From a virus: a stretch of DNA of 33,241 nucleotides. The stretch spans positions 1 to 33,241 of IMG/VR virus record IMGVR_UViG_3300049596_000150; one strand, given 5' to 3'. Below are positions 8,164-10,762 of this stretch, piece by piece. The notes beneath the pieces were generated by a model, which was not told the origin of the DNA, made no database searches, and worked only from the letters and a program-made list of their open reading frames with translations. A program made the translations under genes and the position numbers. Within the stretch, counting starts at the first letter, position 1; every line of letters starts with the position of its first letter.

Positions 8164-8958
8164 TTATATCCTTTGAGTTAATGGAAAAGTCATGGCTTTC
8201 GCCATTGCATACAATAAACCGGGACCGCAGACTTCAATTACGACATCTTCCTGCGCGAATTCACGGGCAAGGTTTTGAAAGTCCCGCACCTGCTGGCACA
8301 TCCACGGGGCAGCCTTGTATTTTGTTTCGTGGATTGTTGCCGTAATTACGTTTTCACCGTCGTTAGATTCCTGCTCGTAAACGTGGTGTTCGCCATCTGA
8401 ATAGCTGGAATCCATGCCAAACAGGTAGATCTGCCGATAACCCTTTAGCTTGGCCAGAATCATGGCCAACATGCCAACGGTCGTGAAACCGCCCATAAGA
8501 TGCACAGGGCGCTCGCGTTCGCTCTCAAGATACTCGTAGACACCCTCGGTCTGGACGTGCACCAGGTCCACTTTAAAGCCCTCTAAGGCATCAAATACGC
8601 AGGGATCACACTGGCTGGCTACGTAAAACTGAGTTTCCAGCTTGGGATTCTGCACAAACCGCACATTTTCCGGCCTGGCGTCGAGCATGACATGCCCATC
8701 AGGGACAATCCCGCGGGCAAGCAACCAATCATAGGACCCATTGACAGACCAGATCTTGGCGCCGTTCTGATGCCGAATCATTAGCTGCTGGACCGACTGG
8801 TTTAGACTTGGAGCACCCCCAACGATGCAGATGCTTTCTTGGTTAGATTCCTCACTGAAATCAAACCAAGAAAGCTGCCTTTTGCAAGACAGCTCCACAT
8901 TCCCCAGCATTACGCTGGGGAGTGTGTTTCCAACAACGTCTAGAACTGCATCAACCAT
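8164..8958 (-). CDS. MptE-like / DUF115-type protein (Maf-related fold)
   Basis: This 264-residue protein resembles the MptE-like (DUF115, PF01973) family, which includes 6-hydroxymethylpterin diphosphokinase and the motility accessory factor Maf glycosyltransferases. Visible motifs are CIVGGAPSLNQSV (44-56), a nucleotide-binding-like Gly loop; IWSVNGSYDWLLARGIVPDG (69-88); VMLDARPENV (90-99); and GGFTTVGMLAMILAKLKGYR (156-175) followed by IYLFGMDSSYSDGEHHVYEQ (177-196). The start ATG 8958 overlaps the stop of the upstream gene as TAATG. Position inside the head operon suggests it modifies a virion or host-surface component, or a nucleotide. Substrate is unknown. The family call is fairly secure, the reaction is not. 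Confidence 0.75.
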   Translation of the reverse strand: MVDAVLDVVGNTLPSVMLGNVELSCKRQLSWFDFSEESNQESICIVGGAPSLNQSVQQLMIRHQNGAKIWSVNGSYDWLLARGIVPDGHVMLDARPENVRFVQNPKLETQFYVASQCDPCVFDALEGFKVDLVHVQTEGVYEYLESERERPVHLMGGFTTVGMLAMILAKLKGYRQIYLFGMDSSYSDGEHHVYEQESNDGENVITATIHETKYKAAPWMCQQVRDFQNLAREFAQEDVVIEVCGPGLLYAMAKAMTFPLTQRI

Positions 8959-9521: not shown

Positions 9522-10762
9522 TTAAGCGATCAACACGCCGCTAAACTGCGGGCCGCTGGCGCAGAGATTGCCCGCCCACCCAATCAACTTAACAATCATT
9601 CTGTTACTTTCAGCCTTTCGGCTTACTGACCATCTTTCGATGGCGGGGGGACCGCTTCGGATCTCCCTCACTGGCTTCAATAAAGTTATACCAGTGTTCA
9701 GACTATCGCATACACCCTTCGGTGTCCCTCTCACTTAGTCGTTCACGCTGCTTTCGCTTGCGCCCTGTCGCCCGCTTCCGGGCTTCCAAGTCAATCAGAG
9801 AAGGTTTAAAGACGCCATTAATGCAAAGTAGGTTTAGCGTCTTGGTTAACGGCTTGCCGTTCGCCGCCAATCGGCACGAAATTCCGGTCAACGTGCGGCC
9901 GGAAGAAAATGTATTTCGTGTTCAGGAAAAACATGTGATTAGCCGTTGCTGCGCTGCCGATACCGCCGTCAAGCACAACATCGGATGCCATGCCCGCGCC
10001 GTAATACTTCAGCGAGGCAAAGCCAGCACCAGCAGACGAATTGCCACTATCCGAAATGCGCTGGATCGACTGCAACGATTGCAGATACAGACGATAGTAG
10101 TTATTGTCGGCAACGATCAGATCCGGCTTGTCGGTCCCGCGGATGAGCTGAACAGCGATCGAATCCATATACTGCTGGATGTTGGAAGCAGTAACAGCAG
10201 AACCGCCGTCAGTGGTTCCAGAGTAAGCAACAGAGCGCCAGAACGAGAACGTTGCCCGGTTGATACCGCCGTAGGTGCCAGACGAAGGAGCATCCGGCAC
10301 AGCAGCACCGAGTCCGGTGATGTTCTTGCCAGAGTTGCCGGTGCCGTCCAGGTAGATGTCAGAACCGATACGGTTCATCAGTTGCGCCTCGGCAACGTTC
10401 ATGCGACCGTCCAGCAGGTCGATAATCGCTTCCTTGCCGCTGTTCTGAATCATCTCCAGACCGCTGATCGATACCGCGGCAGCGTACTGGGTAATGCCGT
10501 ATTGAGCAGCCGAAATCGGGCTGTTCTGGCTGACGTTCAACACTTCATATCCGCTATAGCTGTTGGTGTTGTTGGTCGTGGTGTCGTTGTACATAACCTC
10601 TTGCAGGATGACGTTACCGCCGGAGAACGTTTTAACGTTTCCGCGTTCCTTCAGCCGGCGCAAGAGTGCGTTGTTGTTTGTTACGTTGTCGGCCAGCTCA
10701 CCGCTACGACTTTGAATGTTGGTCGCAATGATGTCGCTGATCGAGCTATTGGCAAAAGCCAT
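9522..10762 (-). CDS. Major capsid protein, interrupted by a group I intron (join of 9836-10762 and 9522-9596)
   Basis: Exon 1 starts at ATG 10762 (AGGAGC ribosome binding site) and encodes 309 residues up to ...QAVNQDA. Exon 2 (9596-9522) encodes IVKLIGWAGNLCASGPQFSG and four more residues before TAA. Together they give a 333-residue HK97-type capsid protein, preceded by scaffold and followed by decoration-like genes. Without splicing the frame reads KPTLH and stops at 9818, losing a C-terminus whose QDA-[VI]-KLIGWAGNL join is typical of such capsid proteins. The N-terminal MAFANSSISDIIATNIQSRS and the IGSDIYLDGTGN and VDRNFVPIGGER motifs are also typical. An annotation that ignores the intron would show a truncated 314-residue protein. 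Confidence 0.88.
9597..9835 (-). ncRNA. Group I self-splicing intron in the capsid gene (239 nt, no ORF)
   Basis: Exon 1 ends in AAGACGCU (9843-9836), which pairs over 8 bp with the intron guide GGCGUCUU (9816-9809), including the required U-G at the splice site (P1). UAAU (9820-9817), just 5' of the guide, pairs with the first bases of exon 2, AUUG (9596-9593), as P10. GACUA (9740-9736) pairs with UAGUC (9705-9701) as P7. P5 is GCCCG/CGGGC (9783-9779/9774-9770) and P8 is ACACC/GGUGU (9725-9721/9716-9712). P9 is CACUGG/CCAGUG (9696-9691/9674-9669). Two GAAA-capped hairpins follow (9643-9630 and 9623-9612). The last intron base is G9597. The intron carries no homing endonuclease. Subgroup not assigned. 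Confidence 0.92.

What the first reader, a model, noticed from the sequence alone, without database searches (positions are those of the whole stretch)
9597..9835. Compact 239-nt group I intron with no homing endonuclease and a traceable core
P1 with the U-G splice-site pair, P10, P7, P5, P8, P9 and two GAAA-capped hairpins can be drawn, and the last base is G. It has no room for an endonuclease ORF, so it either moves with outside help or has lost its ORF. The P10 match (UAAU with AUUG) independently supports the 3' splice site.
Basis: partly seen in the sequence, partly recalled or inferred. Interest (0 to 1): 0.75.

Follow-up and report, generated by a model that had tools for sequence, protein, structure and literature searches.

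The report
Small self-splicing intron in capsid gene
A freshwater phage's major capsid gene is interrupted by a 239-base piece of catalytic RNA that should cut itself out of the message; it is a real and recently mobile group I intron from a widespread phage family that the standard RNA-family model misses.

Summary
[quoted passage not shown] Removing it extends a truncated 314-aa ORF into a 333-aa MCP matching what 74 of 80 homologous phage contigs encode without interruption; the other six carry the same intron. A contig 97% identical in its flank has the empty site. Covariation across 49 relatives supports P3, P6, P7 and P8, including the P3/P7 pseudoknot (99.1% of cells paired; 0 of 500 shuffles). 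Across 41 capsid-site copies the U·G splice pair is invariant and P10 is always paired.

The same search finds all three T4 introns, so this is a blind spot of the model, not a refutation.

85 capsid loci carry it (231-248 nt, no endonuclease); about 90 other places in phage contigs hold relatives, some with LAGLIDADG or HNH genes. Mobility is recent: an identical 239-nt intron sits in flanks about 85% identical. No endonuclease that would move it was found. Unexpectedly, its first 18 nt read KPT[LIF]H-stop in frame in every copy, varying mainly at third positions. Kind: known. Lineage: apparently uncatalogued.

The parts
9836..10762 (-). MCP exon 1 (309 codons)
   Evidence: PHROG 9953 major head protein; 80 homologous loci
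9597..9835 (-). group I intron, 239 nt, no ORF
   Evidence: precise presence/absence versus L001; covariation; CM R1 hit 124 bits
9522..9596 (-). MCP exon 2 (24 codons plus stop): IVKLIGWAGNLCASGPQFSGVLIA
   Evidence: identical in position and similar in sequence to uninterrupted homologues; spliced protein reaches PHROG profile position 328/329 versus 305 unspliced
9836..9843 (-). P1 5' strand in exon 1, ending in the splice-site U (AAGACGCU)
   Evidence: U·G 41/41
9809..9816 (-). internal guide sequence, P1 3' strand (GGCGUCUU)
   Evidence: also in the MFE fold
9817..9820 (-). P10 intron strand (UAAU); partner is exon 2 9596-9593 (AUUG)
   Evidence: 100% paired, one AU to GC compensation
9818..9835 (-). 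in-frame KPTLH-stop read-through of unspliced mRNA
   Evidence: KPT[LIF]H* in 61/61 alleles, 18 of 22 changes at third positions
9798..9804 (-). P3 5' strand (CCUUCUC); 3' strand 9732-9726
   Evidence: 7 of 7 pairs with changes on both sides
9764..9790 (-). P4 (9790-9787 / 9767-9764) enclosing P5 (9783-9779 / 9774-9770)
9745..9763 (-). P6 and P6a, GAAA-capped
   Evidence: 5 of 6 pairs with changes on both sides
9700..9742 (-). P7 with bulged nucleotide (9742-9736 / 9705-9700), holding P3 3' strand and P8
   Evidence: 100% paired; A-U/G-C beside the bulge and A-U/G-C/U-A at the other end
9712..9725 (-). P8 hairpin
   Evidence: 4 of 4 pairs with changes on both sides
9669..9696 (-). P9
   Evidence: 5 of 6 pairs with changes on both sides
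9646..9667 (-). P9.1 hairpin (provisional name)
   Evidence: 5 of 8 pairs with changes on both sides
9630..9643 (-). P9.2 hairpin, GAAA-capped (provisional name)
9612..9623 (-). P9.3 hairpin, GAAA-capped (provisional name)

Best explanation
[quoted passage not shown] Exogenous guanosine bound in P7 attacks after the U of the conserved U·G pair in P1; the freed exon 1 then attacks after the terminal G, held by P10, and the exons are joined to give the 333-aa capsid protein. The chemistry is inferred from the conserved anatomy; the splice sites and restored reading frame are shown by comparison. At the DNA level the intron passes between related phages by recombination at a fixed site, carrying a short stretch of flanking exon with it. 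This is most simply homing or gene conversion, with any endonuclease supplied in trans by another phage or since lost (inferred).
For: Splicing in silico gives the MCP that 74 of 80 homologous contigs encode uninterrupted and completes the PHROG 9953 profile. Empty allele L001 is 96.7% identical in the flank. Covariation in 49 relatives: 99.1% paired, 211 cells changed on both sides versus 47.5 shuffled, 0/500, and 39-44% paired when slid. In 41 capsid-site introns U·G is 41/41, P10 100%, and P9 and P9.1 are compensatory. MFE z = -3.7. Transfer: L339's intron is 239/239 identical while its flank is about 85% identical; L008's intron has 2 differences with exon 1 at 82%. Window versus L001: 5 of 16 MCP differences lie within 19 nt at the insertion (p about 4e-6), and those positions resemble intron-bearing L008. 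All six intron-bearing alleles found without forcing the exon have GACGCT versus 15 of 74 empty ones (p = 2e-4).
Against: No RNA was examined. Rfam Intron_gpI gives no hit at E<=10. No endonuclease for this copy was identified. The co-conversion argument rests on one allele pair, and its window was set after looking.
Confidence: 0.94

Rival explanations
1. A splicing-dead relic: it folds like a group I intron but no longer splices, and the phage uses the 314-aa truncated capsid protein.
For: No RNA evidence; RF00028 sees nothing; the read-through end KPTLH-stop is conserved.
Against: Catalytic core, U·G, terminal G and P10 are intact and covarying in 41 distinct copies. Exon 2 stays in frame and encodes the conserved C-terminus in all copies where it could be read.
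Confidence: 0.03
2. The insertion is a non-intron structured element (attenuator, programmed translation element or mobile DNA element) that happens to fold.
For: No match in Rfam.
Against: P3/P7 pseudoknot with P4-P6 and P8 in the group I order, bulge in P7 beside an invariant G-C, U·G, terminal G and P10; the same core lies in other phage genes with in-frame junctions, such as a P22-type coat protein.
Confidence: 0.01
3. A true intron, but inherited vertically: high intron identity reflects slow evolution, and empty alleles are losses.
For: Intron and exon identities correlate (r = 0.85).
Against: At similar exon 1 identity to the window (79-82%), intron identity is 99% (L008) or 84% (L020); L339's intron is identical across an 85% flank; exon differences from L001 cluster at the insertion.
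Confidence: 0.07

Closest known systems
ORF-less group I introns of Jug phages (PMC12363816)
   Same: compact (about 206 nt on average), many per genome, in essential phage genes; 37 of 76 checked had splicing support in metatranscriptomes
   Different: different phages and genes; whether they share this core sequence was not tested here
Capsid-gene intron of mycobacteriophage LittleE and the 265-bp tail-gene insertion of BAKA (PMC3706429)
   Same: group I introns in virion genes, shown to splice
   Different: the LittleE intron is 819 bp with a LAGLIDADG-like gene; no relation to this core was tested
psbA intron of cyanophage S-PM2 with free-standing F-CphI, collaborative homing (PMC6083498)
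   Same: ORF-less intron at a fixed site that spreads between phages
   Different: there the endonuclease gene lies beside the intron-bearing gene; none was found here
T4 td, nrdB and nrdD introns (group IA)
   Same: U·G, P7 G-site, terminal G (established knowledge); an early in-frame stop is typical of such introns (PMC3073962)
   Different: T4 introns carry or carried endonuclease genes and are seen by RF00028 (40, 36 and 105 bits), whereas this family is not

Membership tests
group I intron | P3/P7 pseudoknotted core with P4-P5-P6 and P8 in the standard order | tested here: met
   covariation on 49 sequences with the pseudoknot written in; P4 is invariant except one position
group I intron | guanosine-binding G-C pair in P7 next to a bulged nucleotide | tested here: met
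   invariant G-C in 49/49; A-U or G-C covariation across the bulge
group I intron | U·G pair at the 5' splice site | tested here: met
   41/41; also in other host genes
group I intron | last intron base G and P10 with exon 2 | tested here: met
group I intron | exon ligation restores the gene product | tested here: met
   in silico only:
group I intron | match to Rfam Intron_gpI RF00028 | tested here: not met
   no hit at E<=10. This is a detection model rather than a defining feature: T4 td and nrdB score below its 50-bit cut-off, and the literature calls it incomplete (PMC11878797, PMC6125680)
group I intron | GTP-dependent self-splicing | not testable with these tools
   needs an in vitro transcript
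mobile (homing) group I intron | presence/absence at a conserved site among close relatives | tested here: met
mobile (homing) group I intron | encoded homing endonuclease | tested here: not met
   231-248 nt in 85 of 85 capsid loci
mobile (homing) group I intron | co-conversion of flanking exon | tested here: inconclusive
   one clear pair, window versus L001
collaborative homing (S-PM2 type) | free-standing endonuclease gene adjacent to the intron-bearing gene | tested here: not met
   no HNH_3, GIY-YIG or LAGLIDADG_1 match in the window record; HNH_3 in 2 of 11 intron-bearing and 3 of 7 empty records, none adjacent in the intron-bearing ones
named subgroup (IA1-IE) | subgroup-specific peripheral helices and CM score | not testable with these tools
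   GISSD subtype models are not available here; P2 and P7.1/P7.2 were not seen

The most novel reading that the evidence does not exclude
Intron retention makes a second capsid protein. The unspliced message ends in KPT[LIF]H-stop in all 61 distinct alleles, and most changes fall on third codon positions. Selection may therefore keep a 314-residue capsid isoform (or a tail that marks it for disposal), with splicing setting the ratio of two capsid forms.
Probability: 0.13. Interest if true: 0.8.

Novelty: new member of a known kind. Interest (0 to 1): 0.5.

Why it matters
It shows that a common lineage of phage group I introns is invisible to the standard Rfam model, so intron counts in viromes, and annotations of capsid genes as truncated, are biased; an alignment and covariance model that find them now exist. 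The capsid site, with empty and filled alleles in near-identical phages and no endonuclease at hand, is a clean natural system for asking how ORF-less introns spread. The conserved in-frame tail gives a testable hint that unspliced capsid mRNA may matter.

Tried and rejected
Rfam at gathering and at E<=10: no Intron_gpI hit; a T4 control showed why this is not evidence against. A search for a nearby homing endonuclease in the window (Pfam on most ORFs) and in 17 related records found no consistent candidate. A motif scan of 873 kb found none, but the motif set would have missed the HNH protein of L082, so it is weak evidence. My first exon 2 pattern missed 28 alleles; reading them showed the same intron in more distant MCPs. 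The reverse-splicing route was considered: the clustered exon changes favour a DNA route but do not exclude it. The bacterial distribution looked poor: 2 of 300 genomes in one order and three real members among 116 genome contigs carrying the motif. L410 was a chance match in another gene.

Full report
What is there. The window is an IMG/VR virus record of 33,241 bases. On the minus strand an ORF at 10762..9818 encodes a protein that matches PHROG 9953, major head protein, but stops at profile position 305 of 329. Removing 9835..9597 joins ...GERQAVNQDA to IVKLIGWAGNLCASGPQFSGVLIA and a stop; the 333-aa product matches the profile to position 328. Of the 80 best-matching loci in IMG/VR, 74 encode that same continuous C-terminus and six (L002, L003, L008, L020, L023, L028) carry the same insertion at the same codon.

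Is it a group I intron. A pattern scan with part of its core (TTGACTTGGAAGCCC) retrieved 119 stretches of viral DNA, most holding the same RNA. An alignment of 49 diverse cores was tested against an explicit structure with the P3/P7 pseudoknot. Of all cells, 99.1% form standard pairs, with 211 cells changed on both sides (shuffled mean 47.5, 0 of 500 as high); sliding the partner by 1 to 3 columns drops pairing to 39-44%. All seven P3 pairs and all four P8 pairs have compensatory changes, as do five of six P6 pairs, including C-G to G-C swaps. P7 has the canonical form: five pairs, a bulge, and one more pair that covaries across the bulge. P4 and P5 rest mainly on conservation in this set; P5 covaries in the capsid-site set. 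In 41 distinct full-length capsid-site introns the U·G pair is 41/41, P10 is 100% paired with an A-U to G-C compensation, and P9 and P9.1 covary strongly. The window's copy folds with the helices P1, P3-P6, P8 and P9 at z = -3.7. Some other host genes show the same logic: a P22-type coat protein (L084) gives an in-frame junction with a U·G-containing P1, and the P22-type coat gene of MW202674 is annotated as two separate coat CDSs around its copy.

Why Rfam misses it. RF00028 gives no hit in the window even at E<=10, nor at its gathering score in 20 family loci. As a control, the same model finds T4 nrdD at 105 bits but td at only 40 and nrdB at 36, below its 50-bit cut-off. Published work says the model is incomplete (PMC11878797) and that no single alignment captures group I diversity (PMC6125680). 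A covariance model built here, R1, scores the window at 124 bits and finds about 90 strong matches in 100 retrieved loci. It finds none in the six larger empty-site relatives and none in the T4 td/nrdB stretch; the only T4-region match, near nrdD, is at chance level (13.8 bits).

Distribution. Scanning for the exon-intron junction found 85 stretches in IMG/VR; 85 loci (61 distinct sequences, including the window's own, some loci overlapping on one contig) could be read through to exon 2. The intron is 231-248 nt in every one, with no ORF-bearing version. The MCPs range from identical to quite distant variants, yet the insertion codon is always NQDA|IV. An independent scan from the 3' junction recovered the same set plus contig-end fragments. 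In cultured-phage records the family is rare: Roseobacter phage CRP-118 (between two ribonucleotide reductase ORFs), a Desulfovibrio phage entered twice, and the environmental genome MW202674.

Mobility. The intron itself has moved recently. L339's copy is identical to the window's over 239 nt although the surrounding 4.2 kb is 84.8% identical with the intron included; L008's differs by two bases while exon 1 is 81.7% identical. At similar exon divergence other pairs have introns only 84% identical, so slow evolution does not explain it. Against its empty sibling L001, 5 of the window's 16 MCP differences fall within 19 nt at the insertion (p about 4e-6); those bases resemble intron-bearing L008, whereas distal exon 2 equals L001. 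That is the footprint expected of co-conversion in homing (reviewed in PMC3984707). No endonuclease was tied to it: the window record has only a conserved PDDEXK_14 phage nuclease (23516-23986), no HNH_3, GIY-YIG or LAGLIDADG_1 match, and HNH genes do not track the intron in relatives. Elsewhere in the family, introns carry antisense LAGLIDADG genes in the P6 region or an HNH gene after P7. Loss of such a gene followed by trans help or plain recombination is therefore plausible but unproven.

An unexpected detail. Read in frame from exon 1, the intron begins K-P-T-[L/I/F]-H-stop in all 61 distinct capsid-site alleles. [quoted passage not shown] counting sites only, about 0.01 by hand from the same output). 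An early in-frame stop is usual and is thought to keep ribosomes out of the intron (PMC3073962), and the stop overlaps the P10 strand; neither explains conservation of the amino acids. A retained-intron capsid isoform is the most novel reading left open; unknown RNA constraint in the P1 loop is the sober alternative.

Verdict. Observation confirmed, interpretation supported. It is a new member of a known kind (compact ORF-less phage group I introns; compare PMC12363816 and PMC3706429), interesting mainly because the family is common, not matched by the standard model and recently mobile. What was shown is comparative; splicing and transfer chemistry are inferred.

Noticed in passing
window 9818-9835 (minus) and the same site in 61 alleles: The intron's first 18 nt encode KPT[LIF]H-stop in frame with the capsid gene, with changes concentrated at third codon positions.
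   Followed up: partly
L339 8541-8300 (minus): A second intron core of the same family lies about 80 nt upstream of the capsid-site intron in the same gene.
   Followed up: partly
L190, L183, L167, L095: Three family cores within 1-2 kb of one another on a single contig.
   Followed up: no
L115, L120, L126, L140, L143, L158, L176, L185, L192, L197: Family introns with a LAGLIDADG-like gene on the opposite strand inserted in the P6 region (two such proteins were scanned with Pfam, one from L115 and one from L096).
   Followed up: partly
L397 (T4 136000-146000): T4 td and nrdB introns fall below Rfam's gathering score for Intron_gpI, a caution for anyone using that model on phages.
   Followed up: yes
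window 8164-8958 (minus): Gene two places downstream of the capsid gene matches MptE-like (6-hydroxymethylpterin diphosphokinase MptE-like, PF01973), unusual company for head genes.
   Followed up: no
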